Assembly: GCA_944387375.1 (NCBI GenBank)
Contig: CALXEQ010000001.1
Span: 188,483 to 252,482 of the forward strand
Source: an uncultured Clostridia bacterium
GTDB lineage: Bacteria > Bacillota > Clostridia > TANB77 > CAG-465
DNA: 64,000 bases
Reading direction: 5' to 3'
How positions within the stretch are numbered: the stretch's first letter is position 1; each line of letters begins with the position of its first letter. The position numbers and the translations under genes are program-made. The notes beneath the pieces were generated by a model that saw only the letters and a program-made list of their open reading frames with translations, searched no databases and had not been told where the DNA came from. Of the stretch, positions 5,401 through 54,809 are shown piece by piece.

Positions 5401-5405
5401 AGTAA

Positions 5406-6251: not shown

Positions 6252-6259
6252 GTGATGTA

Positions 6260-6775
6260 ATGAAAAATTTTCTAAAAGGATTGTGTATATTAGTTTTATT
6301 TATTATAGCTCTATTTATACAATTATTTGTATTTAATAATATGGAACTTTTTGGCGTAAAGCCGAATTTAATACTTATTTGTGTAATAGTAGTTGGATTA
6401 TATACTAATATTTATAGCTCTACAATATTTTCTTTTTTAGTAGGTATTATAGTCGACTTACTTTTTGGTAGTGGAGGTATGTTTATAATATCTTATACTG
6501 CTATAGGTATGCTTCTTGGATATATAAGCGGAGACTATATGAAAGAAAATTATTTGTCTATAATACTTATAACTGCTATTAGTGTTACATTGTTTGAAGT
6601 AGTTGAGTATGTACAAAGCATGATAATATTATCTAAATATATAAGCTTTCTTTTCTTAATTAAGCAAGTTATATTAAGTATATTATTAAATACGGTTTTA
6701 GTATTTATAATTTGTTTTATTTTTGGAAAAATAATAGGACTTATAGATAAAAAACAAAATAAATTATATTGGTAA
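6260..6775 (+). CDS. mreD: Rod shape-determining protein MreD
   Basis: 171 residues, almost wholly hydrophobic, with about five to six membrane helices and a conserved KPNLILI motif at the end of the first loop, as in MreD. It follows mreC by 8 bases and precedes PBP2. MreD is a membrane partner of MreC in the elongasome. RBS AGGTGATGT. Confidence 0.9.
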   Translation: MKNFLKGLCILVLFIIALFIQLFVFNNMELFGVKPNLILICVIVVGLYTNIYSSTIFSFLVGIIVDLLFGSGGMFIISYTAIGMLLGYISGDYMKENYLSIILITAISVTLFEVVEYVQSMIILSKYISFLFLIKQVILSILLNTVLVFIICFIFGKIIGLIDKKQNKLYW

Positions 6776-6791
6776 AAAAGGAGGGCATGAG

Positions 6792-9901: not shown

Positions 9902-11278
9902 ATGAGTAAATATAATATTTACAAAAATATAAGTAAAAATATATTTAGAGGATATGATATAAGAGCTGTATATGGACAGGATTTAAACGAAGATATAGCT
10001 TATACCATAGGATTATCTTTTGGTTCTTATATTCAAGATAAAGGATATAATAAATGTCTAGTTGGACATGATAATAGAGACTCATCTAATCCACTAGCAG
10101 ATGCTTTAATAGAGGGGATAACAAGTACTGGTGTAAATGTAGTATATTTAGGATTATGTACAACTCCTATGTATTATTATGCACAAAAATATTTAAAAAT
10201 AGATCCAGGTGTTATGATTACTGCATCACATAATCCTAAAGAATATAATGGATTTAAAGTAGCTTTTGATGATTTTGGTAATGCATGTGGACAAATGATA
10301 CAAGATTTTAGAGTGTATACTGAGAATGGAAACTTTAAAACAGGTAAAGGTAATGTTAGCACTTATGATATTAAAGAGGCATATTTAAAAGCAATAAAAG
10401 AGTCAATAAAAATGGGAGATAAAAAAATAAAAGTTGTTCTTGATACTGCAAATGGTACAGCATCAATTATAGCAAAAGAAGTGTATTCTATGTTTGATAA
10501 TATTGAACTTGTACCGTTAAATATTGAATCTGATCCTGCTTTTCCAAATCATCATCCAGATCCAAGTGTAGAGGCAAATAATAAAATGCTAAAAGATGAA
10601 GTTTTAAAAACACATGCAGATGTGGGGATAGGAATAGATGGAGACGGAGATAGAGTCGGAATTATAGATGAAAAGGGTACAATGATATTTATAGATTTCT
10701 TTGCTATTATTATATGGCGTGACATAATGGATAAAGTAGAAAATAAAAATGCTTTATTTGATGTAAAATGCTCTAAATCTTTAGTAGATGAAATAGTAAA
10801 ACTTGGTGGTACACCAGTATGTTATAGAACAGGTAATTCTTATATGAAAGCTAAAATGAGAGAGGGAGAATTTGCTTTTGGCTCAGAGCTTTCAGGACAT
10901 GTATTTTTCAGAGATAAATGGGATAATATTGACGATGGATTATATGCAGGTCTTAGACTTGTAGAAATTTTATCTAAAACAGATAAAACTGTCTCTGAAC
11001 TATTAGATGGTGTAAATAGATATTATTCTAGTCCAGAGATAATAATTCGTTCAACTGATGAAGAAAAATTTAAGGTTATTGAAAACGTTAAGAATTATTG
11101 TATTGAAAAAGGATATAGCATAAATGATATAGATGGTGTAAGAGCTGAATTTGATAATGGATGGGCACTTGTTAGAGCATCAAATACAGGACCTAATATA
11201 ACTGCAAGATTTGAGGGAAAAACACAAGAGGATGAAAAGGCAATAGAAGAGGAATTTATGAGTTTAATTAAAGGGTAG
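9902..11278 (+). CDS. Phosphomannomutase/phosphoglucomutase
   Basis: 458 residues of the alpha-D-phosphohexomutase family. The phosphoserine loop TASHNPKEYNG (serine near residue 108) accepts and donates phosphate; GDGDRVG (about 246) binds magnesium; ELSGHVFF provides sugar contact; and TGPNITARFEG near the end binds the substrate phosphate. Family members interconvert hexose 6- and 1-phosphates and feed nucleotide-sugar synthesis. The enzyme directly precedes the polysaccharide locus, so supplying precursors for it is a natural inference. Mannose versus glucose preference cannot be told from sequence alone. Confidence 0.88.
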   Translation: MSKYNIYKNISKNIFRGYDIRAVYGQDLNEDIAYTIGLSFGSYIQDKGYNKCLVGHDNRDSSNPLADALIEGITSTGVNVVYLGLCTTPMYYYAQKYLKIDPGVMITASHNPKEYNGFKVAFDDFGNACGQMIQDFRVYTENGNFKTGKGNVSTYDIKEAYLKAIKESIKMGDKKIKVVLDTANGTASIIAKEVYSMFDNIELVPLNIESDPAFPNHHPDPSVEANNKMLKDEVLKTHADVGIGIDGDGDRVGIIDEKGTMIFIDFFAIIIWRDIMDKVENKNALFDVKCSKSLVDEIVKLGGTPVCYRTGNSYMKAKMREGEFAFGSELSGHVFFRDKWDNIDDGLYAGLRLVEILSKTDKTVSELLDGVNRYYSSPEIIIRSTDEEKFKVIENVKNYCIEKGYSINDIDGVRAEFDNGWALVRASNTGPNITARFEGKTQEDEKAIEEEFMSLIKG

Positions 11279-12410: not shown

Positions 12411-13193
12411 ATGGGTTTTATTAGCAAGATTAAAGAAATTTATACATATAGACATATGTTATTTACATTAGTAAAACAAGATATAAATGGTAGATATAAA
12501 GGATCAATTTTTGGATTTTTATGGACATTATTAAATCCATTATTTATGTTACTTGTTTATTCTATTGTATTTCAGTTTGTTTTTAGATCAGATATAGAAA
12601 ATTATCCAATTTATTTATTTATATGTTTGATGCCATGGAATGCATTTAATAATATGATAGGAGCAGGAACAACTTGTGTATCCAATAATGCAAGTATATT
12701 AAAAAAAGTATATTTTCCAAGAGAAGTATTACCTTTATCAGTGGTAATTAGTAATACTATTCAATATTTCTTTAGTGTAGTAATTATATTTATTGCTTTA
12801 CTTGTATCAGGAGTAGGAATTTCTTGGTATGCTTTACTATTACCTCTTGTGGTTTTGGTACAAATTACTTTTGCATTTGGATTAATTTTAATGTTATCTG
12901 CAGCAAATGTTTATGTAAGAGATGTACAGTATATGATGAATCCAATAATGATGATTTGGATGTATGCATCACCAATATTATATAGTATTACAATGGTTCC
13001 AGAAAAATGGTTATGGCTATATAAACTAAATCCTATGGTTTCAATATTACAAGGATATCAAAATATTTTATATGATCAAACATTACCAGATTTTAAGAGT
13101 CTAGGAATAGTATTTCTAGTATCACTAGGCATTTGTGTAATTGGATATTTAATATTTAATAAATTACAAAGACGTTTTGCAGAGGAGGTTTAA
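12411..13193 (+). CDS. ABC-2 type polysaccharide export permease (Wzm/TagG-like)
   Basis: 260 residues with six predicted membrane helices. The start DINGRYKGSIFGFLWTLLNP and the later MNPIMMIWMYASPILYS are typical of permeases exporting lipid-linked O-antigen or teichoic acid. It overlaps no other gene and is followed by its ATPase, whose start lies just past this stop. Together they would move an undecaprenyl-linked glycan across the membrane. Confidence 0.88.
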   Translation: MGFISKIKEIYTYRHMLFTLVKQDINGRYKGSIFGFLWTLLNPLFMLLVYSIVFQFVFRSDIENYPIYLFICLMPWNAFNNMIGAGTTCVSNNASILKKVYFPREVLPLSVVISNTIQYFFSVVIIFIALLVSGVGISWYALLLPLVVLVQITFAFGLILMLSAANVYVRDVQYMMNPIMMIWMYASPILYSITMVPEKWLWLYKLNPMVSILQGYQNILYDQTLPDFKSLGIVFLVSLGICVIGYLIFNKLQRRFAEEV

Positions 13194-13194
13194 T

Positions 13195-13947
13195 ATGGCT
13201 AAAAGGAAAAATAAAAATGATGATATTGCGATTTCTGTAAAAAATGTTACAAAAGAATTTACTGTTTGGGAAGATAAGTCATATTTTTTAAAAGAAAAAA
13301 TAGGAAATTTTAAAAGAAACAAAAAAAGAAAACATGTAGTTTTAAAAGATATATCATGTGATATAAAAAAAGGTCAATCAGTAGCATTAATAGGTGTTAA
13401 TGGTTCTGGTAAATCTACACTTTTAAAGCTATTAAATAAAATTATATATCCTGAAAAAGGAACTATTGAAATAAATGGAAAAGTATCAAGTATGATAGAG
13501 CTTGGTGCTGGATTTAATACAGATTTTACAGGACGTGAAAATATATATTTTAATGCGTCTATGTATGGTCTTGGAAAAAAAGATGTTGATCCAATAATAG
13601 ATGATATAATAGAGTTTTCAGAGCTTGGAGACTTTATAGAAACACCTGTAAGGACATATTCATCTGGAATGTATATGAGACTTGCTTTTTCAATAGCTGT
13701 AAATGTACAAGCAGATATATTATTAATAGATGAAATATTAGCTGTTGGAGATGCACATTTCCAATCAAAATGTTTAAATAAAATGAAAGAGCTAAAAGCA
13801 CAAGGAAAAACTATGGTATTTGTATCTCATAATATAGATCAGGTAAAAAGTTTTTGTGATAGAGCATTATGGATTAAAGATGGTGAAATAATGATGGATG
13901 GAGATACTGATAAAGTATTAGAAGAATATATAAAAGTTCAAGGATAG
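13195..13947 (+). CDS. ABC transporter ATPase of polysaccharide export (Wzt/TagH-like)
   Basis: 250 residues. Start at the ATG at 13195 behind GAGGAGGT; an upstream ATG at 13177 lies inside the permease gene. Walker A GVNGSGKST, signature YSSGMYMRLAFS, Walker B ILLIDEILAVGD and the switch histidine in VSHN are all present. It ends soon after the nucleotide-binding domain, so the C-terminal carbohydrate-binding domain of long Wzt proteins is absent. Partner of the preceding permease. Confidence 0.9.
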   Translation: MAKRKNKNDDIAISVKNVTKEFTVWEDKSYFLKEKIGNFKRNKKRKHVVLKDISCDIKKGQSVALIGVNGSGKSTLLKLLNKIIYPEKGTIEINGKVSSMIELGAGFNTDFTGRENIYFNASMYGLGKKDVDPIIDDIIEFSELGDFIETPVRTYSSGMYMRLAFSIAVNVQADILLIDEILAVGDAHFQSKCLNKMKELKAQGKTMVFVSHNIDQVKSFCDRALWIKDGEIMMDGDTDKVLEEYIKVQG

Positions 13948-13962
13948 AAAGGTAACATAAAT

Positions 13963-15717
13963 ATGAGTAATAATATAAAAATTATTTGCTGTGATAGTAC
14001 AGATAAGTACAAAAATGAATATAAAAAGTATTTTAATAATTATGATATATTAGATTTAAAATATAGTGATTTATTAAAAAATAATGATAATCAAATAAAA
14101 GAAGAAAATCCATTATTTAAAGAGTATATAATTTTTTCATATTTATATAATAATGCAGGATTACTTTTATATGGAGATTTTGAATTTATTAAAAGTATAA
14201 AAGCCTTTTTTGAAAATGATTTTTTTATAGGATTTAAGGATTATTCAGATTTAGCTTGTAATATTATATGGGTAAAGGAGAAGAATAATGCTACTATAAA
14301 GAGAGTTTTAGAATTAATAAGACAAGAAAAATATAGTAATATTACAGATTTATTTTCAGAAATTATAGAAAAAGATTTACATAATAATTATAATTATGTT
14401 TTAAAATTTGATAATAACTCTTATATATATCCATATGATTTCTTTTATCCTGTAGATTATGAAAGAATAGGAAAAGGATTTACAGATAATATAAAAACAA
14501 TATATTATGATCCTAATCAAAAGCTTACTAGTAAACAAAAATATAAAATCAATACTTTAAGAAAAATTGGACCAACAGCTTGTGAGTATTTCTTTGAGAT
14601 TACAAGAAGAGTAAAAAACAATGTTGGATATAAGAAGTATATAACAGTTCAAAAAATTAAAAGTAGATTTTCTGTAAAAAAAGATGCTGGGATTGAAGAA
14701 ACTTTTGAGGCTTTAGATAAGTATTTAGAAAGAAAAAATAATGGGGAAAATATAGAATATTTAATAATACATAATCCTAGATGGCTTGGAGTAACTAGTG
14801 CTACCAAAGAATTATTTACTAATTTACTTCCTATGCAAGAAGTATTTTTAAATAGTAATGTAGATAAAATTGTAGATATGATTATTAAAATTGATGCAAA
14901 GCAAGTAATATTTAGTGCTTTTAATTATGGATGGGATAAAATAGCAAGAAAATTAAAAGAAAGAAATAAAGATATAAAACTAAAAAGTTTTTGGCATGGT
15001 AGTCATTCTCAGGTAATTGAAGAAATTAATTGGGGTACAAATTTAATGGTTATAAATTTGCATAAAGAACACATTATAGATGTTATGGGAACATGCAAAG
15101 AAAGTTTAGTTAATTTTTATAAATCGCAAGGATATAAAACAGCATTTATTAAAAATACTGTAAGATTAAATGATGATGTTAAAGATGCGATAAGTAAAGT
15201 AAAAAAACAAGATGATGGTAAATTAAAATTTGGATTATATTCTGCAAGTACTGATTGGAGAAAAAATACATTTAATCAAGTTATGGCAGCTTCTTATTTC
15301 GATAATGCACAACTTGAGGTGGTACCTTTAAGATATGAACTTAAAAAACTAGCATATTATAATGATTTAGAAATTGTTGGTTCAGACTCACATTTAAAAA
15401 GAGAGGATTTGCTTTTAAGAATGGCACAAAGAGATGTTGTTTTATATGTAACATTTTCAGAATGTGCACCAATGCTTCCTATAGAAAGCTTAGAAGCTGG
15501 AACTATTTGTATAATGGGACATAATCATCATTATTTTAAAGATAGTAAATTACATGATTATTTAGTTGTTGAAAGAGAAGATGATGTTATTTCTATTTGT
15601 GAAAAAATAGAAAACGCATTAAAAAATAAAGATGAAATATTTAGGTTATACAAAGAGTGGAAAAAACAAAATGATGAAGAAAGTAAATTAAGTGTTGAAG
15701 AATTCTTAAAAATGTAA
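13963..15717 (+). CDS. Two-domain glycosyltransferase: decayed GT32-like plus GT-B
   Basis: 584 residues, no membrane segment. The N-terminal part (about 1-190) aligns by eye with the GT32 domain encoded at 16798: both have a gene-wide order of helix, GG/AG turn, an acidic strand, FFIGF or LFLGV, then IIWVKE or VVWVKE, then YPYDFFYP or YPMEYFYP. But the catalytic LDTDME of GT32 is LYGDFE here, so the first metal-binding aspartate is lost. The C-terminal part (about 250-584) has WHGSHS and ECAPMLPIE, an E-x7-E motif of retaining GT-B enzymes, and is clearly paralogous to the next gene. Acceptor and donor are unknown. Confidence 0.7.
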   Translation: MSNNIKIICCDSTDKYKNEYKKYFNNYDILDLKYSDLLKNNDNQIKEENPLFKEYIIFSYLYNNAGLLLYGDFEFIKSIKAFFENDFFIGFKDYSDLACNIIWVKEKNNATIKRVLELIRQEKYSNITDLFSEIIEKDLHNNYNYVLKFDNNSYIYPYDFFYPVDYERIGKGFTDNIKTIYYDPNQKLTSKQKYKINTLRKIGPTACEYFFEITRRVKNNVGYKKYITVQKIKSRFSVKKDAGIEETFEALDKYLERKNNGENIEYLIIHNPRWLGVTSATKELFTNLLPMQEVFLNSNVDKIVDMIIKIDAKQVIFSAFNYGWDKIARKLKERNKDIKLKSFWHGSHSQVIEEINWGTNLMVINLHKEHIIDVMGTCKESLVNFYKSQGYKTAFIKNTVRLNDDVKDAISKVKKQDDGKLKFGLYSASTDWRKNTFNQVMAASYFDNAQLEVVPLRYELKKLAYYNDLEIVGSDSHLKREDLLLRMAQRDVVLYVTFSECAPMLPIESLEAGTICIMGHNHHYFKDSKLHDYLVVEREDDVISICEKIENALKNKDEIFRLYKEWKKQNDEESKLSVEEFLKM

Positions 15718-15726
15718 GGAGGAAGT

Positions 15727-16782
15727 ATGAATAGACATGTAAAGAAGGTAAAATCTATATTTTTTTACCAAAAAGAACAAACAGAAGATGTAATAGAAGA
15801 TATAAACGAGATAGAAAATGGGTCTTTTGTTGTAATATATAATCCAGAATGTTTTGGAATAAAGAATTCTGCAAAAGAAATTTTTGGAAAGAAAAATTGT
15901 GTAAAATTATATGAGATTTTCAATGAGAAGCAGATTTGTAATATTGCCCAAGCTATTGTAGATAAAAATTTTGAACAAGTAATTTTTGCTACTATGGCAT
16001 ATGGATATAAAGATTTGGCAGAAAAAATATATGAGCTTAACAATAAAATTAAAATAAAATTTATGTGGCATGGTAGCCATTCTCTATTTGTAAACTATAA
16101 TGAACAGAAATTTTTAGAAGAGATTTTACAGCTTCAAAAAAGAAAAATAGTAACATCAATAGGATTTTTAAAGAAGAGTATGAAAGAGTTTTATTCAAAA
16201 AAAGGATATAATTCGTATTGGTTAATTAATGATGTGAATTTAGATAAAAACAAAATAGAGAAAAAAGAAAAAAATAATGAAATAAAAATTGGACTATATT
16301 CATCTGGTGATAGATGGGAGAAAAATACGTATAATCAACTTAGTGCATGTGCAATGGTAAAAAATGCTTATGTTGATATTGTACCAATGACAAAGCTTGC
16401 AACTAGTTTTTGTAAACTTATGAGTATAAAAACTGTTAGTGATGATAATGAATTTTCTATAAAAAGAAAAGAATTATTAAAGAGAATGTCTAAAAATACT
16501 ATCAATTTATATGTTACATTTACTGAATCTTCACCTATGATACCATTGGAAAGCTTTGAGGTAGGAGTTCCATGTATAATTGGAAATAATACAGATTATT
16601 TTAAGGGAAATGAAATAGAAAACTATATTGTTGTAAAGGAAGAAGACAATATTGATGAAATATATGATAAGATAAATTTATGTATTGAAAATAAAGAGAA
16701 AGTATTAGAATTATATAAGGATTGGAAAAAAGAACACACTAAAAAGGTGTTAGAATTAAAAGAGGAATTTTTAAATAGTTAA
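15727..16782 (+). CDS. GT-B glycosyltransferase, paralogue of preceding C-terminal domain
   Basis: 351 residues. It shares with the previous protein the WHGSHS motif, a GLYSSGDRWEKNTYNQ block (GLYSASTDWRKNTFNQ there), and ESSPMIPLE, again E-x7-E, near the end. This points to tandem duplication of a GT-B fold domain. No GT32-like part is present. It lies 9 bases after its paralogue and is presumably co-translated in the same operon. The family is not one I can name with certainty; GT4-like is the nearest description. Confidence 0.65.
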   Translation: MNRHVKKVKSIFFYQKEQTEDVIEDINEIENGSFVVIYNPECFGIKNSAKEIFGKKNCVKLYEIFNEKQICNIAQAIVDKNFEQVIFATMAYGYKDLAEKIYELNNKIKIKFMWHGSHSLFVNYNEQKFLEEILQLQKRKIVTSIGFLKKSMKEFYSKKGYNSYWLINDVNLDKNKIEKKEKNNEIKIGLYSSGDRWEKNTYNQLSACAMVKNAYVDIVPMTKLATSFCKLMSIKTVSDDNEFSIKRKELLKRMSKNTINLYVTFTESSPMIPLESFEVGVPCIIGNNTDYFKGNEIENYIVVKEEDNIDEIYDKINLCIENKEKVLELYKDWKKEHTKKVLELKEEFLNS

Positions 16783-16797
16783 TGGAGGTTAATATAA

Positions 16798-18612
16798 ATG
16801 GAAAAAAATAACAAGATAATACATTATATTTGGTTTGGTGGAAATCCAATTTCTGAACTTACAAAAAAATGTATTGCTACTTGGAAAAAGTACCTTCCAG
16901 ACTTTGAAATCAAAGAATGGAATGAAAATAATTTTGATGTAACACAATGTCCTTTTGTAAAGGAAGCTTTTGAACAAAAAAAATGGGCTTTTGTAGCAGA
17001 TTATACAAGATTTAAGGTGTTAGAAGAATATGGTGGAATATATCTTGATACTGATATGGAAATAACAGCAGATATATCTAAATTTTTAGAAGATGATTTG
17101 TTTTTAGGTGTAGAAGATTCTAAGCAAATTAATGCTGCAGTTGTTTGGGTTAAAGAGGCACATAATCCTTATATAAAAGATATTGTAGATATATATGAAA
17201 GCAAGAAGAAGTTTAATGAAACTGGAGACTTATATGATGAGAGTGTACCTAAAGTGTTAACAAAATACTTTAGTAAATTCGGATTTGACGGTGAGAAGGA
17301 TGAAATCCAAATTTTTGAAGATAATAAGATACATATATATCCTATGGAATATTTTTATCCATTAAGTTATGACTATCAAAATAACAAATTTACAGATAAC
17401 TCTGTTATGATTCATCATTTTGATGCAACTTGGATAAAACCTATGGAAAAATTTAAAACAAAAATGAAAAGAAAAAATATGGTATGGGTTGTATATATTA
17501 TAGATTTTTTCATTTCAATAAAAAATAAGATTAAGTTTTTTAGTAATAACAGAGACTTGACGATATTTTTTACTATGTTTTTGACAATGTTTTTAGCAAT
17601 GTTAACGTTAAAACCTATAAATGATGCAGGGATATTTTCTAATATTTCTGTTGGAGGAAAATCTTTATTACAAATTGTTGGATTTTCTTTTATATGGACT
17701 TTCGTTACAGCTAAAATAAGAAATATAGATTTGAATTCATATGTAGATAGAATAACAAATTTTAATCCAGACAATGAAAATTATAAAGCACCTTTATTAA
17801 ATTTGGAACAAACTCTTAAATTACAAAAAAGAGAAAGAATAATATATCTATTTCAATTTATAACAACATTGTTTGTGGCTTTTTTACCAATTTTAGAATT
17901 AGTAAATATTTTACCCAATAATACTACAATTTTTGGGTTATTGCTAATATTAAATATGTATTATATATATTTAGGTATAAAGAAAAAATATAAATACAGA
18001 ATATTAGAGTTAGTGCCATATGCAATAATTCTATCACTTATGATTGTATTAAATCCTGCAATAGGAATATTAATATCTATTGTAACTTTTGGATTTATAT
18101 TATATAAGTTAATAAGTTTAAAAATTAAACCTAAAAGACTTAAAGCTTTTGTTATAGCATATATTGTATGTACATTCTTGGTTGCTATTTTAAGTGTAGC
18201 AATTCCAAATTTTAACAAATTTGATAGTATTAATATTGGATCTAATTTAATAGAAAACAATAAATTAGATGAAATAGATAATGTAGAATTAGAAAGTGAA
18301 GTAATTACACAATTTAATGCTGCAAAGCCAGTATTCTACGACAATATTAAAGACACTATAATTTCAAATGTTAGCTTATATCCTAATTTATATGTTATAA
18401 TGTCAATAGTTTTAATTATAATAATATCTATAGTATCTAAAAAATTTGACTATATATTTTTATTAATACAGATATTATTAGGTTCTATATATATAATGAG
18501 TATATCGATAAATTCTTTATTATATATTTCTTGTATATGTTTTGCTTTTATATTATTATTTGCTATAGAAATTATAGTAGATAAAATATTAACTAGAACG
18601 TGGGAGGAATAA
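16798..18612 (+). CDS. GT32 glycosyltransferase fused to a polytopic membrane domain
   Basis: 604 residues. The first 225 are a GT32 (OCH1/capsular mannosyltransferase-like) domain: IIHYIWFGG at the start, then YGGIYLDTDMEI with an intact DxD. About residues 235-604 are unlike the usual GT32 partner: roughly nine to ten hydrophobic helices with one longer extracytoplasmic loop near residues 465-515. GT32 proteins are normally soluble, so the fusion is noteworthy. The membrane part may anchor the enzyme to a lipid-linked acceptor. RBS GGAGG; the next gene starts one base after this stop. Confidence 0.7.
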   Translation: MEKNNKIIHYIWFGGNPISELTKKCIATWKKYLPDFEIKEWNENNFDVTQCPFVKEAFEQKKWAFVADYTRFKVLEEYGGIYLDTDMEITADISKFLEDDLFLGVEDSKQINAAVVWVKEAHNPYIKDIVDIYESKKKFNETGDLYDESVPKVLTKYFSKFGFDGEKDEIQIFEDNKIHIYPMEYFYPLSYDYQNNKFTDNSVMIHHFDATWIKPMEKFKTKMKRKNMVWVVYIIDFFISIKNKIKFFSNNRDLTIFFTMFLTMFLAMLTLKPINDAGIFSNISVGGKSLLQIVGFSFIWTFVTAKIRNIDLNSYVDRITNFNPDNENYKAPLLNLEQTLKLQKRERIIYLFQFITTLFVAFLPILELVNILPNNTTIFGLLLILNMYYIYLGIKKKYKYRILELVPYAIILSLMIVLNPAIGILISIVTFGFILYKLISLKIKPKRLKAFVIAYIVCTFLVAILSVAIPNFNKFDSINIGSNLIENNKLDEIDNVELESEVITQFNAAKPVFYDNIKDTIISNVSLYPNLYVIMSIVLIIIISIVSKKFDYIFLLIQILLGSIYIMSISINSLLYISCICFAFILLFAIEIIVDKILTRTWEE

Positions 18613-18613
18613 A

Positions 18614-20809
18614 ATGCGAGTAATTCTAAGAGAATTATTAATAATACCAGTATATTTTATATTATTGATTTTAAAAAATGTAGAAGCTATAGCAACAAAT
18701 GGTATGAGTGCAATTAAAAGTTTAGACTTGGTAAATTGGCCTCTTACAATTGGTGTAATATTATTTTCTATAATATTTATATTTTATGATAAATTAAAAG
18801 ATAAGAAAAAATTTATTTTTTCAATAAGTTTTGTAACTTTAGCTTGTATGCTTATGCAAGGATTTTTTCCAGAAAAAGAAATATATAGATATATATTATT
18901 ATATGTAATAATGATGTATAATGCATTTTTATTTTCATATACAACAAAAAATAAATTTGAAACATCTATATTTGCATCAAATGCAATATTATTATTTGTA
19001 TTGTTAATATTAGGAATGGCTGATATATTGCATTATGCAGTAGTTATAATAGGAATAATTGAAGTAATTATTTCTATATGTGCATTAATACTTTACTTAA
19101 AAAATAGAAAAATAGATAAAAAATATGAATTAAATTTTAATTCTAGTGCTATGGTTATTTTTTCTATATTTTTTGTTGCTTTTATATTAGGAGGCATTAA
19201 CAGATACGTACATATTTGGGATGAATATTCTCACTGGGGATATGATGCAAAGGCTGTAATAAATTATGAAAAATTAACTACTTGTGAAGAATCAATGTCT
19301 GCAACAAGAAGTTATCCACCATATGTTAGTTTGTGGCAGTTTTTTGTAAGTAAAGTTATGGGTGGATTTAGCGAAGGAAACTTATATACAGGACTTGCTT
19401 TATTTACACTAATTAATCTTATGCCAGCATTTAGCTTTATTGGTAAAAAGAATAAATTTTTATTACCATTTTATACAATATTAATTATATTTGGCGCATC
19501 ACTATTTTCATCTGGATATGGATATACTTCTTTATATGCAGATTATGCAATGGCTGCTGCATTTTTCAACTGCTTTGTCATGTACTTCTTGTTTAAAGAT
19601 GTAGATACTAAAAAGATGATGAGAATGTTGCTTTTGAGTTTAAGCGTTTTGTTAATGATAAGACCTACTGGAATAATAGCAGCATTTGTATTTTTTGTGA
19701 TAGTAATGCTAACAGACTACTTAAAAGTAAATGATTATAAATTTACTTTTAAAGGATTTTTTAAAAACGCTTTTAAAGTATTAAAAAAATGGTTGTTATT
19801 AGGATTGTTAATAGTAGGGTTATATTTTGCATGGAATATATATTTAAGAATTTGTAATGCTACAATTCCTATGTATTATGATGCACAAATAATACCTGAT
19901 ACGCTAAGAACCGATTTAGCAGTTAAACTAAATTCGTATATATTAGGTAGAGTTGCATATCACTTTTTAAGCATGTTTGATAGTGTAGAGTTTATAAATT
20001 TAACTGTTACTAAATTTATTATTTTAATGACATTATTTGCTTTTTGCATATGTTATTTAAAAAATAGAAATAATGGAGAAAAAGAAGTTAAAAAAACAAT
20101 AATGAAATTAGTTCCATATATTATCGGATGGATTGTATTTCTTTTGTTAAATGTATTTGCTATGTTTCTTAAATTCCCAGTATATGAAGCACAAACTTTA
20201 CCAGGACTTTTAAGATATATAGATATATATAATGTAGCTATGTTTTTAATATTAATAGCTTTAACCTTTAGAGAGAACTTTATAAACAATAAGACAAATT
20301 TTATAATAGCATCAGTTATAATGATATTGCTTTGTTCACAATTAAAAGTTTTAAATATTACATATTTTGTAAGCGATATTAGTGAAAGAAAAGATACAAG
20401 AGATACTAGTTATCAATTGCAAGATAAATTTGCAATTGTAAATGAGAATACACCAGAAGATAGTAAGGTTTATATAATTGATCAGCAAGATAAGGATGGA
20501 ATTATGGCTTTATGGTATGCTAGATATTATAGTTTTCCTAGAAAAATAAATGCATATCAAAGTGCTATATCTTGGAAGATTAGAACAGATAAAAATGTAG
20601 ATGACTTACAAGATTGGGGACTTACAGCACAGGATTTAGAAGACGATTTATATGAATATAAATTTGATTATATATACTTCTATACTTCAGATGATCAAAT
20701 GTATGAAAGAATGGCATACATGTTTGAAGATTATGAGGAAGCAAAAGAATGTTCTTTATTCAAGATAAATTTTGAAGGCGAAAATGTTAAATTAGTAGCT
20801 GTGGAATAG
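18614..20809 (+). CDS. Polytopic membrane protein, probable GT-C type glycosyltransferase
   Basis: 731 residues with about 12-14 hydrophobic helices and a hydrophilic C-terminal domain of about 130 residues. After helix five or so a loop carries HIWDEYSHWGYDAKA (near residue 202), an acidic D-E motif of the type that GT-C transferases use at the outer membrane face with polyprenyl-phosphate sugars. It could instead be a polymerase, since no other Wzy candidate is evident. It starts one base after the GT32-fusion stop, so the two are surely co-translated. Confidence 0.6.
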   Translation: MRVILRELLIIPVYFILLILKNVEAIATNGMSAIKSLDLVNWPLTIGVILFSIIFIFYDKLKDKKKFIFSISFVTLACMLMQGFFPEKEIYRYILLYVIMMYNAFLFSYTTKNKFETSIFASNAILLFVLLILGMADILHYAVVIIGIIEVIISICALILYLKNRKIDKKYELNFNSSAMVIFSIFFVAFILGGINRYVHIWDEYSHWGYDAKAVINYEKLTTCEESMSATRSYPPYVSLWQFFVSKVMGGFSEGNLYTGLALFTLINLMPAFSFIGKKNKFLLPFYTILIIFGASLFSSGYGYTSLYADYAMAAAFFNCFVMYFLFKDVDTKKMMRMLLLSLSVLLMIRPTGIIAAFVFFVIVMLTDYLKVNDYKFTFKGFFKNAFKVLKKWLLLGLLIVGLYFAWNIYLRICNATIPMYYDAQIIPDTLRTDLAVKLNSYILGRVAYHFLSMFDSVEFINLTVTKFIILMTLFAFCICYLKNRNNGEKEVKKTIMKLVPYIIGWIVFLLLNVFAMFLKFPVYEAQTLPGLLRYIDIYNVAMFLILIALTFRENFINNKTNFIIASVIMILLCSQLKVLNITYFVSDISERKDTRDTSYQLQDKFAIVNENTPEDSKVYIIDQQDKDGIMALWYARYYSFPRKINAYQSAISWKIRTDKNVDDLQDWGLTAQDLEDDLYEYKFDYIYFYTSDDQMYERMAYMFEDYEEAKECSLFKINFEGENVKLVAVE

Positions 20810-20812
20810 GAG

Positions 20813-21511
20813 ATGGTTAAAATTAAAGTTTTAATTATAGTGCCAGCATATAATGAAGCACTAAATATAGAAAAAACAATAAAAGATATAAAGAAAAATA
20901 CAAATTACGATTATGTAGTAATTAATGATTGCTCAAAAGATAATACAAAAGAAGTTTGTAGGAAAAATGGGTTTAATATGGTATCTTTACCAATAAATTT
21001 TGGACTTACAAGTGCAATACAAGTTGGAATGAAATATGCAAAAGAAAATGGCTATGACATTGCAATTCAATTTGATGGTGATGGTCAACACAATGCAAAA
21101 TATTTAAAAAGTCTAGTAAAAGAAATTGAAAAAAATAATATAGACGTTGCTATAGGATCTAGATTTGTAGAAAAGAAAAAGCCATTTTCTGCTAGAATGA
21201 TAGGAAATAGACTTATTAGTTTGGCAATAAAACTTACTACTTGGAAGAAAATAACAGATCCTACATCAGGAATGCGTGCATATGATAAAAAAGCTATTGA
21301 GTTATTTAATAGTAATGCAAGTTTGACACCCGAACCTGATACCATTGTATATATGCTTAAAAAAGGACTTAAAGTAAAAGAAGTACAAGTTGAGATGAGT
21401 GAAAGAGAATTTGGAGAGAGTTATTTAAATGCATTTAAATCTATTAAATATATGATGAATGTGATGTTATCAATCTTATTTATAAGATCAATAACTAGAA
21501 AGAAGATATAG
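20813..21511 (+). CDS. GT2 glycosyltransferase, polyprenyl-phosphate sugar synthase-like
   Basis: 232 residues. IIVPAYNEALNIEKT, then VINDCSKDNT, then QFDGDGQHNAKY with the DGD metal site, then DPTSGMRAYD, as in dolichol-phosphate mannose synthase-like proteins. No membrane helix is obvious. The following gene encodes a DUF2304 protein, a pairing known for such transferases, where the small partner may serve as membrane anchor. RBS AGGAG is very close to the start. Confidence 0.82.
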   Translation: MVKIKVLIIVPAYNEALNIEKTIKDIKKNTNYDYVVINDCSKDNTKEVCRKNGFNMVSLPINFGLTSAIQVGMKYAKENGYDIAIQFDGDGQHNAKYLKSLVKEIEKNNIDVAIGSRFVEKKKPFSARMIGNRLISLAIKLTTWKKITDPTSGMRAYDKKAIELFNSNASLTPEPDTIVYMLKKGLKVKEVQVEMSEREFGESYLNAFKSIKYMMNVMLSILFIRSITRKKI

Positions 21512-21523
21512 GAGGCAAAAAGT

Positions 21524-21877
21524 ATGTCAATTACACTTAGAGTTATTTTATTAATAGGTTCAGTAATATCTTTTATTTTATGTGTCAGAAGAATAAAACA
21601 AGCAAAACTAAAAGTTGAAAATTCTATAATCTGGATGGTAGGAAGCTTTGTATTAATTTTAATGAGTATATTTTCAAATGCTGTAGGTTGGCTATCTAAC
21701 AAATTAGGATTTATGGCACCAGTTAATTTTGTATTCTTTATGATAATGGTATTTTTATTAATACAAGTTTTTGTAGATAATATAAGATTATCTGAATTAA
21801 ATGAAAAAATAAAGAACTTAAATCATTATATAGCATTAAAAGAAAATAGAGATGAAAACAAGAAAGAAGAAAAATAG
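21524..21877 (+). CDS. DUF2304 small membrane protein
   Basis: 117 residues with three hydrophobic helices and a charged C-terminal tail. The RRIKQAKLKVENSIIWM block between helices one and two is characteristic of DUF2304. Members lie beside GT2 polyprenyl-phosphate transferases, as here (12 bases downstream). Function is unproven; membrane partner is inferred from context. Confidence 0.8.
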   Translation: MSITLRVILLIGSVISFILCVRRIKQAKLKVENSIIWMVGSFVLILMSIFSNAVGWLSNKLGFMAPVNFVFFMIMVFLLIQVFVDNIRLSELNEKIKNLNHYIALKENRDENKKEEK

Positions 21878-21889
21878 AGTGAATAATTT

Positions 21890-22813
21890 ATGGATAGGGA
21901 TAAATATAGTGTAGCCATATGTATGTCTACATATAATGGGGAAAAATATATAAAAAAACAAATTGAAAGTTTGTTAAAACAAACATATAAAAATATAGAT
22001 ATATATGTAAGAGATGATGGCTCTAGAGATAACACTTTAAAAATTTTAAAAGAATATGAAAAAAATACTAAAGTAAAAATAATAACTGGAAAAAATTTGG
22101 GAGTTGTAAAAAGTTTTTATGAATGTTTAAAACAAGCATATAATACTAAGAAATATGATTTTTTTGCATATTGTGATCAAGATGATGTATGGCACAAAGA
22201 TAAAATACAAAAGGCAATAGTTCTTTTGAGTAAACAAGAACAAAATATACCACTTTTATATTTTAGCGAATTTAACTATTGTGATGAAAACTTAAAAATT
22301 ACTCAAAAATCTAATTTAAATAAAATAGGAGCCAGTTTTAGAAATTCTTTACTTGAGTGTATATCTTTTGGAATAGTAGAAGTATTTAATAATTCTCTTG
22401 CAAAAGAAATAATTAATTCAACCACAAAAGATGTTTGCTATCATGACTGGTGGGCTTATATGATTGCGTCTGGAATAGGAAAAACTTTATACGATGATAG
22501 TGCTACAGTAAAATATAGACGAACAGGTCAAAATGTAAGCCCTAGTGGAAAAACAGGATTTTCTTTATTTATATATAGAATAAAAAAATTTTTACTTAAT
22601 GGATATTTTCCAAAAGTGAGAAAACAAATTCAACGATATAAAGATTTATATTCTAATAGTTTAGATAAAGAAAATTTGAAAGTAATTAATCTATTTTGTA
22701 GTAAATATAATTTCTTAAAAGCAATAAGAAAGGTATTCTATCCACATAGATTTAGACAAAATGTTAAAGATGAAATTTTTTGTAGAATTTTATTTTTATT
22801 TGGTATGTTATAA
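21890..22813 (+). CDS. GT2 glycosyltransferase (rhamnosyltransferase-like)
   Basis: 307 residues. ICMSTYNGEKYIKKQIESLL at the start, RDDGSRDNT, AYCDQDDVWHKDKI with the metal-binding DQDD, and a later CYHDWW block. This CDQDDVW pattern is typical of rhamnan or O-antigen rhamnosyltransferases (RgpB-like), though sugar specificity is not reliable from sequence. Soluble. It follows the DUF2304 gene by 12 bases. Confidence 0.8.
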   Translation: MDRDKYSVAICMSTYNGEKYIKKQIESLLKQTYKNIDIYVRDDGSRDNTLKILKEYEKNTKVKIITGKNLGVVKSFYECLKQAYNTKKYDFFAYCDQDDVWHKDKIQKAIVLLSKQEQNIPLLYFSEFNYCDENLKITQKSNLNKIGASFRNSLLECISFGIVEVFNNSLAKEIINSTTKDVCYHDWWAYMIASGIGKTLYDDSATVKYRRTGQNVSPSGKTGFSLFIYRIKKFLLNGYFPKVRKQIQRYKDLYSNSLDKENLKVINLFCSKYNFLKAIRKVFYPHRFRQNVKDEIFCRILFLFGML

Positions 22814-22825
22814 AGAGGGGGAAAA

Positions 22826-23953
22826 ATGAAGAAAATAGCAATTTTTTCAGGATATTATTTACCACATTTGGGTGGTGTAGAAAGATATACGTATAATTTA
22901 GCTAATAAGATGAAACAAATGGGATATGAAATAGTAATTGTATCTTTAAGATATGATGATTCTTTAGAAGAAGTTGAACAGTTGGATTATGCTAAAATAT
23001 ACAGACTACCAACACATAAATTATTTGTTGAAAGATATCCTATTGTAAACAACAATAGTCATTGTAAAAAAATGCTTAAAATGATAGAAGAAGAAAATAT
23101 AGACAGTATTATTTTACAAACAAGGTTTTGGACAAGTTCATATATTGGTTCAAAATTTGCTACTAAAAATAATATTCCTGTATGTTTAATAGAGCATGGA
23201 AGTACACATTTTACTGTTAATAATAAAATATTAGATTTTTTTGGAGCAATATATGAGCATAAACTAACTAATGCTATAAAGAAAAATGTAAAAGATTTTT
23301 ATGGTGTTTCAAAAAAATGTGTTCAGTGGCTTAAACATTTTGATATAGAGGCAAAAGGTGTTTTTTATAATTCAATAAATACAGAAGAAGCCCAAGTATA
23401 TAGTAGTAATATTCAAAAGGATAGTGAAAAAATTTCTATTACATATGTTGGCAGATTAATACCTGAAAAAGGAGTCTTAAAGCTTATATCAATATTTAAA
23501 GATTTGCAAAAAAAATATAATATTGAATTAAATATTGCAGGACAAGGCCCTTTACTTGATAAAATTAAACAAGATAATAAAGATAATATAAACATACATA
23601 TACTAGGTATGCTATCTCATGATGAGGTTATGAATTTACTTGCAAAGACAGATATTTTTATAAATCCTTCTTCATTTCCTGAAGGATTACCTACAACAAT
23701 TTTAGAAGCTGGAATTATGGAATGTGCAGTAGTAGCAACACCAATGGGTGGAACTGCTGAAATACTTGAAAATGAAAATATAGGACTTATTTGTGGATTT
23801 GAAGAAGATGAAATAAAAGAAAAGCTGGTAGAATTGTTAGAAGATAAAGATAAAAGAGAAAAACTTTCTAAAAATATTAAAAAACAAGTAATTGAAAAGT
23901 TCTCATGGGATGCGACTGCAAAAAAAGTTATTAGTACTATAAAATTTAAATAA
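22826..23953 (+). CDS. GT4 glycosyltransferase
   Basis: 375 residues, GT-B fold. The N-terminal GGVERYTYNLA loop, the central YVGRLIPEKGV and the C-terminal PSSFPEGLPTTILEAG with the E-x7-E motif identify a retaining family 4 enzyme. It adds one sugar from a nucleotide donor to the growing repeat. Donor unknown. RBS GAGGGGG. Part of the uninterrupted locus. Confidence 0.87.
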   Translation: MKKIAIFSGYYLPHLGGVERYTYNLANKMKQMGYEIVIVSLRYDDSLEEVEQLDYAKIYRLPTHKLFVERYPIVNNNSHCKKMLKMIEEENIDSIILQTRFWTSSYIGSKFATKNNIPVCLIEHGSTHFTVNNKILDFFGAIYEHKLTNAIKKNVKDFYGVSKKCVQWLKHFDIEAKGVFYNSINTEEAQVYSSNIQKDSEKISITYVGRLIPEKGVLKLISIFKDLQKKYNIELNIAGQGPLLDKIKQDNKDNINIHILGMLSHDEVMNLLAKTDIFINPSSFPEGLPTTILEAGIMECAVVATPMGGTAEILENENIGLICGFEEDEIKEKLVELLEDKDKREKLSKNIKKQVIEKFSWDATAKKVISTIKFK

Positions 23954-23973
23954 TAGGAGGTTATATTTATATT

Positions 23974-24717
23974 ATGAGTAAAGAAACTATAAAAATTTAC
24001 GTAGCTTCACATAAAAAAGCAAATTTTCCTAATAATAAAATATATGTGCCTATTCGTGTAGGAGCTGCTTTAAATGATAACGATTTCGGTTATGTAAGAG
24101 ATGACACAGGAGATAATATATCAAATAAAAATAAAAATTTTTGTGAGCTTACAGCAACATATTGGATTTGGAAAAATGATAAATCAGATATTGTTGGTCT
24201 TACACACTATAGAAGATATTTCTTTAAAAGAAAAAAGAATAATAAGTTACAAAATGTATTAGATAAAAATGATATAAAAAATATTTTAAAAGACTATGAT
24301 ATAATTGTTCCTAATCGTACATTTATTATAAAACATAATGTTGGAAAATCGTGGGAGAAAACACATATTAAAAAAGATTATGATGAATGTAGGAAAATAA
24401 TTGAAGAAATGTATCCAGATTATTTGTCAGCATTCGATGAATTTTCTAAATCTAGAACTTTATATTTATGTAATATGTTTATATCTAGAAAAGAAATTTT
24501 TGATGAATATTATAAATGGTTATTTGATATTTTATTTGAACTTGAAAAAAGAACAGACTTAAGTAATTATGATGATTATAATAAAAGACTTTTTGGATTT
24601 ATGTCAGAAAGATTATTTAACGTTTGGTTAAAAAAACATAGCGAACTTAAAGTTTATAGAACACCAGTATATAATATTGACAGAAGACCATATAATCAAT
24701 ATTTAATGATTAATTAA
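23974..24717 (+). CDS. DUF4422 capsular polysaccharide glycosyltransferase-like protein
   Basis: 247 residues. KIYVASHKKA at the start, a middle block ELTATYWIWKN, then GLTHYRRYF, and NMFISRKEIFDEY later define DUF4422, found in capsule and exopolysaccharide loci and thought to be a glycosyltransferase. The AGGAGG box is about 13 bases before the ATG, longer than usual, and I see no better start. Function rests on family and context. Confidence 0.78.
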   Translation: MSKETIKIYVASHKKANFPNNKIYVPIRVGAALNDNDFGYVRDDTGDNISNKNKNFCELTATYWIWKNDKSDIVGLTHYRRYFFKRKKNNKLQNVLDKNDIKNILKDYDIIVPNRTFIIKHNVGKSWEKTHIKKDYDECRKIIEEMYPDYLSAFDEFSKSRTLYLCNMFISRKEIFDEYYKWLFDILFELEKRTDLSNYDDYNKRLFGFMSERLFNVWLKKHSELKVYRTPVYNIDRRPYNQYLMIN

Positions 24718-24734
24718 GAAAGAGAGTAAATATA

Positions 24735-25964
24735 ATGATAAAAAAGTCTGAATTTGCATGGAATATGGTAGGAAGTGTGATATATGCCCTTTTTAGTGCT
24801 ATTATACTTGCATTTTGTACAAGATTAAATGGAATAGAGATAGCTGGAATGTTTTCTATAGCTTATGCAACATCATGTATTTTAAATGCCGTTGGAGAAT
24901 TTGGTATTAGAATTTTTCAATCTACTGATGTAAAAAGAAAATATACATTTTCCGATTATTTTAGCTCAAGAGTAATAGCAATAATAATTATGATAGTAGT
25001 GACTTTTGCAGCAGTATTTATAGGAGGATATACAGATACTAAACTATGGATTTGCATACTTTTAATATTATATAGAGTAATAGATAATTTAAGTGAATCG
25101 TATCAAGCAGAGTTTCAAATAAACGAAAGATTAGATTTGGCTGGAAAGTCAATGTCATTTAGAAATATTATATCTATAATTGCTTTTATAATAGTAGATA
25201 TTATAACTAAAAATATAATTTTGTCTTGTATTTTTATGGTGTTAGCAAATCTAATTACATTTTTATTATATGATGTAAGATTAATTAAAAATTTTAATAT
25301 AGTTAAAATAAATTTTAATGTAGAGAAAGCATTTAAAATAATCAAAGAATGTATACCTATAGCTGTAGCAGGAATTTTAAATGTATATGTAATAAATGCA
25401 GTAAAATATGCTATAGATGGTGTAGGAGATTATACAATGCAGACATATTTTAATATTATATATATGCCTACATTTGTTATTAATTTAATAAGCTTATTTA
25501 TTATAAAGCCATTTTATAAAATGTTTGGAGATTATTTTGCAAATGGACAATATGATAAGTTATCTAAAATTATGTGGAAAATAATAGGAGTTTTAGTATT
25601 AGCTACTGCTTTTGTTGAAATTGGATGTTTTATATTAGGCGTACCATTTTTAAATTTATTTTATGGTGTTGATATAAGTATGTATAAAGCTGATTTGTTA
25701 ATTTTAGTTTTATCTGGACTATTTTATGCTATGGATAATTTATTATTTAATTTATTAAGCACAATAAGAAAACAAAAATATATTTTTGCTACATATATTT
25801 TAGTTTCGGCTATGTCATTATTTGTTCCTAAATTTTTAGTTGAACATTATCAAATGAGGGGTGCTGCTATTGCAAGTGTAATTATAATGGCATCAATTTG
25901 TATTTTATTAGCAGTATTTTTAAAAATTGGAATTGAAGAGAGGAGAAAGAAGAAAAATGTATGA
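24735..25964 (+). CDS. Wzx-like polysaccharide flippase (MATE/MOP superfamily)
   Basis: 409 residues with about 12 hydrophobic helices. The FAWNMVGSVIYALFSAI start and overall layout fit the oligosaccharide flippases that move undecaprenyl-linked repeat units outward. It is of the usual length for the family. Odd point: the same locus also has an ABC exporter. The glf coding region begins inside its last codons. Confidence 0.82.
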   Translation: MIKKSEFAWNMVGSVIYALFSAIILAFCTRLNGIEIAGMFSIAYATSCILNAVGEFGIRIFQSTDVKRKYTFSDYFSSRVIAIIIMIVVTFAAVFIGGYTDTKLWICILLILYRVIDNLSESYQAEFQINERLDLAGKSMSFRNIISIIAFIIVDIITKNIILSCIFMVLANLITFLLYDVRLIKNFNIVKINFNVEKAFKIIKECIPIAVAGILNVYVINAVKYAIDGVGDYTMQTYFNIIYMPTFVINLISLFIIKPFYKMFGDYFANGQYDKLSKIMWKIIGVLVLATAFVEIGCFILGVPFLNLFYGVDISMYKADLLILVLSGLFYAMDNLLFNLLSTIRKQKYIFATYILVSAMSLFVPKFLVEHYQMRGAAIASVIIMASICILLAVFLKIGIEERRKKKNV

Positions 25965-27063
25965 TTATTTAATAGTAGGAGCAGGATTATTCGGCTCAAC
26001 TTTTGCACATGAGATGACAAAACTTGGAAAAAAATGTTTGGTTATTGATAGAAGACAACATATTGGTGGAAATATTTATTGTGAAAAGGTAAATGGAATA
26101 AATGTACATAAATATGGGGCTCATATTTTTCATACAAGCAATAAAAAAATATGGGAATATGTAAATCAATTTGCAGAATTTAACAACTATGTTAATTCAC
26201 CTATTGCAAATTATCATGGAGAATTATACAACATGCCATTTAACATGAATACATTTACAAAGCTTTGGGGTGTTGTTACTCCTAAAGAGGCAATGGAGAA
26301 AATAGAGTCTCAAAAGAGTATATTAAATGGCAAGGAGCCTCAAAATCTTGAAGAACAAGCAATATCTTTAGTTGGAGAAGATATATATAGAAAACTTGTA
26401 AAAGAATATACAGAAAAGCAATGGGGAAGAGATTGCAAAGAGTTGCCAGCATTTATAATAAAAAGATTACCTGTAAGATTTACATTTAATAATAATTACT
26501 TTAATGATCCTTATCAAGGAATTCCAATTGGTGGATATAATGTTATAATTGAAAAAATGCTAGAAGGTTCAGATGTAAAGCTTGGAGTGGATTACTTAAA
26601 GGAAAAAGATAAATATGATTCTATGGCTAAAAAGGTACTATTTACAGGAATGATAGATGAATATTTTAATTATAATCTTGGAAATCTTGAGTATAGAACT
26701 TTAAGATTTGAAAATGAAGTTTTGGAAGATGTAGACAATTATCAAGGAGTTGCTGTTATGAACTTTACTTCTCATGAACAAGAATATACAAGAATTATAG
26801 AGCATAAGCATTTTGAATTTAATGATTGTAAAGGTACAGTAATAACAAAAGAGTATCCTAGTGCTTGGAAATTAGGCGATGAAGCATATTATCCTGTAAA
26901 TGATGATAGAAATTCAAATTTATATAAAGAATATGAAGAATTAGCTAAAAAAGAAAAAAATGTACTATTTGGTGGTAGACTTGGACAATATAAATATTAT
27001 GATATGGACAAAGTAATTGATGCAGCTTTAGATATGGTAGAAAAAGAAAAAGCAAATATATAA
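25957..27063 (+). CDS. glf: UDP-galactopyranose mutase
   Basis: About 368 residues. A flavoenzyme that converts UDP-galactopyranose to UDP-galactofuranose. The N-terminal FAD motif VGAGLFGSTFAHE, RRQHIGGN, HKYGAHIFHT and later RLPVRFTFN with substrate arginines are as in Glf. I start at the ATG at 25957; a TTG further upstream would lie wholly inside the flippase gene. It overlaps the flippase gene by 8 bases. With galE downstream it predicts galactofuranose in the surface glycan. Confidence 0.94.
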   Translation: MYDYLIVGAGLFGSTFAHEMTKLGKKCLVIDRRQHIGGNIYCEKVNGINVHKYGAHIFHTSNKKIWEYVNQFAEFNNYVNSPIANYHGELYNMPFNMNTFTKLWGVVTPKEAMEKIESQKSILNGKEPQNLEEQAISLVGEDIYRKLVKEYTEKQWGRDCKELPAFIIKRLPVRFTFNNNYFNDPYQGIPIGGYNVIIEKMLEGSDVKLGVDYLKEKDKYDSMAKKVLFTGMIDEYFNYNLGNLEYRTLRFENEVLEDVDNYQGVAVMNFTSHEQEYTRIIEHKHFEFNDCKGTVITKEYPSAWKLGDEAYYPVNDDRNSNLYKEYEELAKKEKNVLFGGRLGQYKYYDMDKVIDAALDMVEKEKANI

Positions 27064-54758: not shown

Positions 54759-54787
54759 TTGAATAATTTTATATGTTATTATACAAT
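54759..54787 (+). promoter_or_regulatory. Promoter of the large dockerin protein gene
   Basis: TTGAAT (54759-54764) and TACAAT (54782-54787) with 17 bases between, 23 bases before the start. Confidence 0.6.
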
Positions 54788-54809
54788 TATTTTAAGTAGG
54801 GGTATGAAT

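What the first reader, a model, noticed from the sequence alone, without database searches (positions are those of the whole stretch)
13963..18612. Glycosyltransferase trio with a decayed GT32 domain and shared GT-B module
Three adjacent genes exchange domains. The first (584 aa) has a GT32-like half whose metal motif LDTDME is replaced by LYGDFE, followed by a GT-B half. The second (351 aa) is the GT-B half alone. The third (604 aa) has an intact GT32 domain joined to a polytopic membrane domain. Shared motifs WHGSHS and E-x7-E are seen directly. The pseudo-GT32 may be a binding or regulatory part, with the third protein as the active partner. I know of no described system with this layout.
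Basis: partly seen in the sequence, partly recalled or inferred. Interest (0 to 1): 0.62.

Follow-up and report, generated by a model that had tools for sequence, protein, structure and literature searches.

The report
Sugar transferase with retained dead domain
In one family of uncultured Clostridia, an enzyme that helps build a cell-surface sugar polymer carries a second enzyme domain that has lost its catalytic residues but is never deleted, while a separate protein of the same gene cluster keeps a working version, so a two-in-one enzyme can be seen being split and its dead half kept, probably for another purpose.

Summary
Gene A (13963-15717) has an N-terminal GT32-type domain that lost its catalytic residues, joined to an intact GT-B (GT4-like) half. 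Gene B is a GT-B half alone. Gene C has an intact GT32 domain plus a membrane domain. This is not random decay. All 23 A homologs found lie in one bacterial family, and all lack the same GT32 active-site set while keeping the fold and some newly fixed residues. Outside A, all 34 readable fused GT32-GT-B relatives are intact. Trees give four clean clades: A (dead GT32), F1 (fused, live), B (no GT32), F2 (fused, live). So A and B descend from two bifunctional fused enzymes, one GT32 silenced and one deleted. C's GT32 is sister to that of F1, as expected if it is the live copy of the domain that died in A. C occurs in 21 of 23 genomes with A and 0 of 13 without. All sit in an ABC-exported (Wzm/Wzt) polysaccharide cluster. 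Best reading: A's dead domain is kept as a scaffold of the synthase and C supplies the reaction. The history is well supported; the scaffold role is inferred. It resembles the dead domains of human EXT2 and CHPF.

The parts
13963..15717 (+). Gene A, 584 aa: pseudo-GT32 domain (aa 1 to about 190), helical linker (about 190-259), intact GT-B/GT4-like half (aa about 261-584)
13963..14592 (+). Pseudo-GT32 domain of A (aa 1-210): first loop deleted, DTD read as YGD, final HxxxxxW lost
   Evidence: predicted model has the strand/helix order of C's GT32
15727..16782 (+). Gene B, 351 aa: GT-B half alone, from a type II fused enzyme that lost its GT32 half
16798..18612 (+). Gene C, 604 aa: intact GT32 domain (aa 1 to about 212) joined to a polytopic membrane domain (aa about 251-604)
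12411..13193 (+). Wzm-like ABC transporter permease; this subtype is found in exactly the 24 family genomes with A or the fused type II enzyme
13177..13947 (+). Wzt-like ABC transporter ATPase (TagH-like; 256 aa, too short for a C-terminal carbohydrate-binding domain)
9902..11278 (+). Phosphomanno-/phosphoglucomutase at the start of the polysaccharide cluster
18614..27063 (+). Rest of the cluster: large polytopic protein (18614-20809), GT2 (20813, 21890), DUF2304-like (21524), GT4 (22826), DUF4422 (23974), polytopic flippase-like (24735), UDP-galactopyranose mutase (25927)

Best explanation
A, B and C are glycosyltransferases of a cell-surface polysaccharide exported by the Wzm/Wzt ABC transporter encoded just upstream. 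The ancestors of A and B were two bifunctional enzymes, each with a working GT32 domain and a working GT-B domain. In this family the GT32 half of the type I enzyme was silenced (giving A) and that of the type II enzyme was removed (giving B). The GT32 reaction is now supplied by a separate protein C, whose GT32 comes from the same lineage. A still transfers its own sugar with its GT-B half. Its dead GT32 half is kept as a non-catalytic scaffold that holds the acceptor chain or a partner (C or B), so that the separate enzymes still work as one synthase. Shown by sequence: loss of catalytic residues throughout the A clade, intact fused relatives, one origin for each of A, B and C, purifying selection on the dead domain, and co-occurrence with C and the transporter. 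Inferred: that GT32 activity is absent in A, that C took over the same linkage, and the scaffold role.
For: Of 34 positions invariant in 57 active GT32 domains (34 fused, 23 free or membrane-fused), only 4 are kept in at least 90% of the 23 A domains and 24 are kept in at most 30%; W12, G14, W63, T85 and W212 are gone in all 23, D86 in 17. Retained fold signature YPYDYFYPxDYE, and five positions (S132, Y158, D165, G170, K178) newly near-invariant in A but rare in active domains. GT-B positions E500, E508, K434, H345 and R480 are invariant in A and B. GT-B tree: A 99/97, F1 100/98, B 100/100, F2 98/95, A+F1 100/100. GT32 tree: C one clade 99/97, joined to the F1 GT32 domains at 98/98 with type II domains outside apart from one long-branched row. 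C in 21 of 23 genomes with A and 0 of 13 without (Fisher p about 1e-7 with 12 A-less genomes). dN/dS of the dead domain 0.09-0.36 in eight pairs. Three early-branching A proteins keep an eroded first strand (for example KIVHYISF against KIIHYCWFG). B shows that the GT32 half can be deleted in this protein family, yet A never loses it.
Against: No interaction data: no tool here predicts complexes, so contact of A with C or B is untested. dN/dS of the dead domain is higher than that of the GT-B half in seven of eight pairs (equal in the other), so constraint is looser than on catalytic parts. C is not always next to A: it lies several genes, up to about 14 kb, away in some genomes. Two genomes with A lack C: one is incomplete, one has a fused active enzyme instead. 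The place of A's own GT32 domain in a tree cannot be read because its branch is very long, so 'C is the live copy of A's domain' rests on C and F1 being sisters. Sugar donors, acceptors and polymer are unknown.
Confidence: 0.58

Rival explanations
1. The dead domain is only a relic that A's fold still needs for stability or solubility; it has no partner and no ligand, and C is simply another transferase of the cluster.
For: The dead domain evolves faster than the GT-B half and than C's GT32 in most pairs; most residues that it shares with active domains are aromatic or glycine fold residues.
Against: Related GT-B proteins (B) exist without the domain, so it is not required for this GT-B fold in general. 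Five residues became fixed only in A. Presence of C tracks presence of A.
Confidence: 0.27
2. The first domain of A is still an active transferase that works without metal, as bacterial GT6 (NXN in place of DXD) does.
For: Metal-independent GT-A enzymes with altered DXD exist (PMC3961637). D84 is kept in 16 of 23 and D68 is D or E in all.
Against: Not only DXD but the nucleotide-binding first loop with its Trp (W12), W63, E106, H206 and W212 are lost, and the residues at the DXD site differ between homologs, which is not what a replacement active site looks like.
Confidence: 0.05
3. C does not replace A's lost reaction; its GT32 adds a side branch or a different linkage, and the loss in A reflects a change of polymer structure.
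For: C is sometimes several genes away from A and may be fused to a membrane domain or free. Free-standing GT32 domains also occur next to intact fused enzymes in some Bacilli (L078, L079, L080, L087).
Against: C's GT32 is sister to the GT32 of the intact type I enzymes and is absent from all 13 family genomes without A.
Confidence: 0.3

Closest known systems
Human EXT1-EXT2 heparan sulfate polymerase (PMC9675754)
   Same: Each subunit joins two glycosyltransferase domains (GlcA-T, GlcNAc-T); the EXT2 GlcA-T domain is described as a pseudo-domain that cannot hold the donor and is kept inside the polymerase complex.
   Different: Eukaryotic; GT47/GT64 rather than GT4-like/GT32; there the dead domain is the GlcA-T (GT47) one, here the GT-A (GT32) one; complex formation is proven there and only inferred here.
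Human CHSY1/3-CHPF chondroitin polymerase (PMC12748766)
   Same: A paralogous subunit that lost donor-binding residues is retained and needed for a stable, active polymerase.
   Different: In CHPF both transferase domains are held to be non-catalytic; in A only the GT32 half is.
COSMC, GT31 (PMC7185993)
   Same: GT-A protein that lost DXD and the second catalytic motif and works as a helper of its active paralog.
   Different: Single-domain chaperone, not a half of a two-domain transferase.
Klebsiella ABC-dependent O-antigen polymerases (WbbB, WbdA, WbbM, O4/O7 systems; PMC11231755)
   Same: ABC-exported glycan built by proteins with several transferase modules, with some modules moved to independent polypeptides.
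   Different: No retained dead module mentioned in the passages read (terms 'inactive', 'noncatalytic' and 'GT32' do not occur); Gram-negative.
Fused GT32-GT-B proteins next to Wzm/Wzt in gut Bacilli and Clostridia
   Same: Same domain order, often the same neighbouring transporter genes; GT-B half 38-49% identical to A's.
   Different: GT32 residues intact in all 34 readable cases; no characterised member found in the papers searched.

Membership tests
GT32 (PF04488, region with DXD motif): gene C | DXD motif and profile match | tested here: met
   PF04488 E 2.5e-12, above its cut-off; DTD in 23 of 23 C-type domains
GT32 (PF04488, region with DXD motif): first half of gene A | DXD motif and profile match | tested here: not met
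   YGD in the window; D84 in 16 of 23, D86 in 6 of 23 homologs; no Pfam GT32 match. Derived from GT32, but not a GT32 enzyme by this test.
GT32 (PF04488, region with DXD motif): first half of gene A | GT-A fold | tested here: inconclusive
   Predicted model has the strand and helix order of C's GT32 and 30% identity to it, but this half was not searched alone against solved structures; the listed structure hits of the A model fall in 254-584.
GT-B / GT4-like (Glycos_transf_1): second half of A, and B | E-x7-E, basic residue, GT-B fold | tested here: met
   E500/E508 and K434 invariant in A and B; model matches GT4 enzymes such as HepE, PimA and BshA at Z 20.5-20.9 over 300-310 residues; Pfam above cut-off in B, below it in A
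GT-C membrane transferases: membrane part of C | Conserved acidic residue in the first outer loop | tested here: not met
   No conserved D/E in the loop after the first membrane helix across 12 sequences; one weak fold match to ALG9, Z 12.8, rmsd 5.0
Wzm/Wzt ABC-dependent polysaccharide cluster | Permease and ATPase genes directly beside glycosyltransferase genes | tested here: met
Polysaccharide polymerase with a retained pseudo-domain (EXT2/CHPF mode of action) | Dead domain required for complex formation | not testable with these tools
   No complex prediction or bench data available

The most novel reading that the evidence does not exclude
A bacterial counterpart of the EXT1-EXT2/CHPF principle: a polysaccharide synthase of A, B and C in which the silenced GT32 domain of A is the docking and acceptor-holding part that couples two GT-B transferases to the separate active GT32 enzyme, with the intermediate states (intact fused, silenced, deleted, separate) still present in living relatives.
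Probability: 0.33. Interest if true: 0.7.

Novelty: new variant of a known kind. Interest (0 to 1): 0.52.

Why it matters
Dead transferase domains that are kept in polymerases are known from animals, where the steps that led to them are hard to see. Here all stages sit side by side in related gut bacteria, and one paralog (B) is a natural control that lost the same domain. That makes the question 'why keep a dead domain' testable with simple deletions and binding assays. It is also a warning for annotation: the N-terminal half of A has no Pfam match and would be read as unknown, or as an active transferase by similarity.

Tried and rejected
Recent domain exchange between the three neighbours: rejected, A and B belong to two old GT-B types. 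Decay in a single genome or a sequencing error: rejected, the same loss in 23 homologs of four genera, under purifying selection. Metal-independent activity: judged unlikely. An alternative metal-binding aspartate pair: none conserved. The membrane part of C as a GT-C enzyme: no conserved acidic residue in the first loop. Class and phylum samples of 391 and 398 genomes gave no A outside the family, only generic GT32 matches to the first domain. Solved-structure sequence searches gave nothing useful for A and B. Literature searches for fused GT32-GT4 enzymes or a bacterial pseudo-GT32 found none in the held library. In the quick GT32 tree three rows were mislabelled by my script (L076 is an A; L092 and L097 are type II fused); the careful tree uses corrected labels. 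A mirror-tree test for co-evolution of A with C was not run, because genes of one cluster share their history and it would not discriminate.

Full report
OBSERVATION. The window holds three adjacent genes on the + strand: A 13963-15717 (584 aa), B 15727-16782 (351 aa), C 16798-18612 (604 aa). BLASTP shows that A's first half is related to C's first half (30% over 162 positions, E 2e-15) and A's second half to the whole of B (34%, E 2e-64). Pfam places C's first 100 residues in GT32 (PF04488) and B in Glycos_transf_1, with a weaker match for A's second half and none for A's first half. The motif change LDTDME to LYGDFE is real. The genes lie in a polysaccharide cluster: phosphomannomutase, GT2, Wzm-like permease, TagH-like ATPase, A, B, C, a large polytopic protein, further GT2/GT4 genes, DUF4422, a flippase-like protein and UDP-galactopyranose mutase.

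HOMOLOGS OF A. A homologs were found in 23 of the 36 genomes held for the same family and not in the rest of the samples: 57 relatives, 391 genomes of the class, 398 of the phylum (other matches are to generic GT32 domains or to fused relatives). B is next to A wherever the contig continues. In every one of the 23 A proteins the GT32 active site is gone. Of 34 positions that are at least 97% invariant in 57 active relatives, 24 are kept in at most 30% of A proteins and only 4 in at least 90%. The losses include the first loop with its tryptophan (W12, G14), W29, W63, T85, E106, H206 and W212; D86 survives in 6 of 23, and no new acidic pair takes its place. Kept are fold residues (Y55, G66, F88, Y156, F161, P163, N176), and five positions (S132, Y158, D165, G170, K178) have become fixed in A although they are rare in active domains. 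dN/dS in eight close pairs is 0.09-0.36 for the dead domain, 0.06-0.17 for the GT-B half, and mostly lower for C. The domain is thus constrained, though less than the catalytic parts. Three early-branching A proteins keep a worn copy of the first strand (for example KIVHYISF for KIIHYCWFG).

INTACT FUSED RELATIVES. A scan of GTDB genomes with the A alignment returned 60 loci from uncultured Clostridia and Bacilli. Outside the A clade these encode fused GT32-GT-B proteins of 595-627 aa, often directly after Wzm/Wzt and often followed by a second, distant GT-B protein of about 311 or 670 aa. All 34 distinct fused proteins with a readable first domain have the complete GT32 motif set. Two of them are in the same family as the window, at the same place after Wzt (G017, G032).

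HISTORY. In the maximum-likelihood tree of GT-B halves, four groups are each one clade: A (99/97), F1 (fused, active; 100/98), B (100/100) and F2 (fused, active; 98/95), with A+F1 against B+F2 at 100/100 (a quick tree rooted on the 311-aa proteins agrees on A, B and A+F1). So two fused enzymes existed. One locus still has both (L082). In this family the GT32 half of one was silenced and that of the other deleted. In the GT32 tree without A, the C domains are one clade (99/97) that joins the F1 GT32 domains (98/98), with the type II domains outside except the long-branched second copy of L082. That is the position expected for a live copy of the domain that died in A. A's own domain has too long a branch to place.

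CO-OCCURRENCE. C is present in 21 of 23 genomes with A and in 0 of 13 without. The two exceptions are an 86% complete genome in which A runs off its contig and a genome that also has a fused active enzyme. The Wzm subtype follows the same pattern: the 24 genomes with A or the fused enzyme have it (E below 1e-100), the other 12 have only 23-26% identical relatives or none. The membrane part is present in 12 of 19 C proteins and has no conserved acidic residue that would suggest a GT-C enzyme.

STRUCTURE. The model of A (mean pLDDT 86) shows a GT-A-like first domain with the strand and helix order of C's GT32, a long helical linker and a GT-B second half. The second half matches GT4 enzymes (HepE, PimA, BshA) at Z about 20.5-20.9. 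C's first domain matches GT-A transferases, among them fungal Och1 (GT32) at Z 15.4 and several effector or toxin transferase domains of the same fold at Z 13-16; these are shared folds and say nothing of a toxin role for C, which lies inside a polysaccharide cluster. A's first domain was not searched alone against solved structures, so its fold rests on sequence similarity to C and on the model.

MECHANISM. Shown by sequence: loss of the catalytic set, retention of the fold, intact GT-B residues in A and B, one origin each, linkage to the transporter and to C. Inferred: A and B each add one sugar with their GT-B site, C adds the sugar that the fused GT32 halves once added, and A's dead half holds a partner or the acceptor. 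The strongest argument for a kept role is the contrast with B: the same kind of half was deleted there without loss of the protein, but in A it has been kept through the whole family. The main rival is a passive relic needed for A's folding.

COMPARISON. The mode of working resembles human EXT1-EXT2, where EXT2 has a pseudo-GlcA-transferase domain inside the polymerase (PMC9675754), and CHSY-CHPF, where the dead partner is needed for a stable complex (PMC12748766). COSMC is another GT-A protein that lost its motifs and gained a helper role (PMC7185993). Klebsiella O-antigen systems show multi-module transferases in ABC-exported glycans with modules moved to separate proteins (PMC11231755). None of these is the same family. 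Loss of DXD alone does not prove loss of activity, as bacterial GT6 shows (PMC3961637), but here the whole nucleotide-binding set is gone.

VERDICT. Real, well supported as an evolutionary finding, a new variant of a known kind; the role of the dead domain is open but testable.

Noticed in passing
4384-8903 and 9902 onward; also most family loci (L024-L048): The polysaccharide cluster lies directly downstream of mreB-mreC-mreD-pbp2, and this order is kept in many relatives, which ties the polymer genes to the cell-elongation genes.
   Followed up: partly
47819-49441, 54759-58112, 58125-59021: Three secreted proteins with dockerin-like C-terminal repeats, two of them with BspA-type leucine-rich repeats, in a genome of only 1.5 Mb.
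   Followed up: no
L082 (9926-11716 and 12703-14502): A contig labelled Saccharibacteria carries both a type I and a type II fused GT32-GT-B gene, both intact; possibly a misassigned contig.
   Followed up: partly
L034 and L046 (G032 contigs C5 and C87): One genome has two Wzm-Wzt loci, one followed by the silenced A and one by an intact fused type II enzyme; could be two clusters or two strains in one bin.
   Followed up: no
L078 2070-2807, L079 4642-5373, L080 3767-4498, L087 6543-7283: Free-standing GT32 domains beside intact fused enzymes in Bacilli, apparently a second, independent detachment of the GT32 domain.
   Followed up: partly
18614-20809: Large polytopic protein with a WDEYSHW segment after an early membrane helix, GT-C-like in appearance; distant relatives (32-36%) lie in a similar place in Bacilli clusters.
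   Followed up: no
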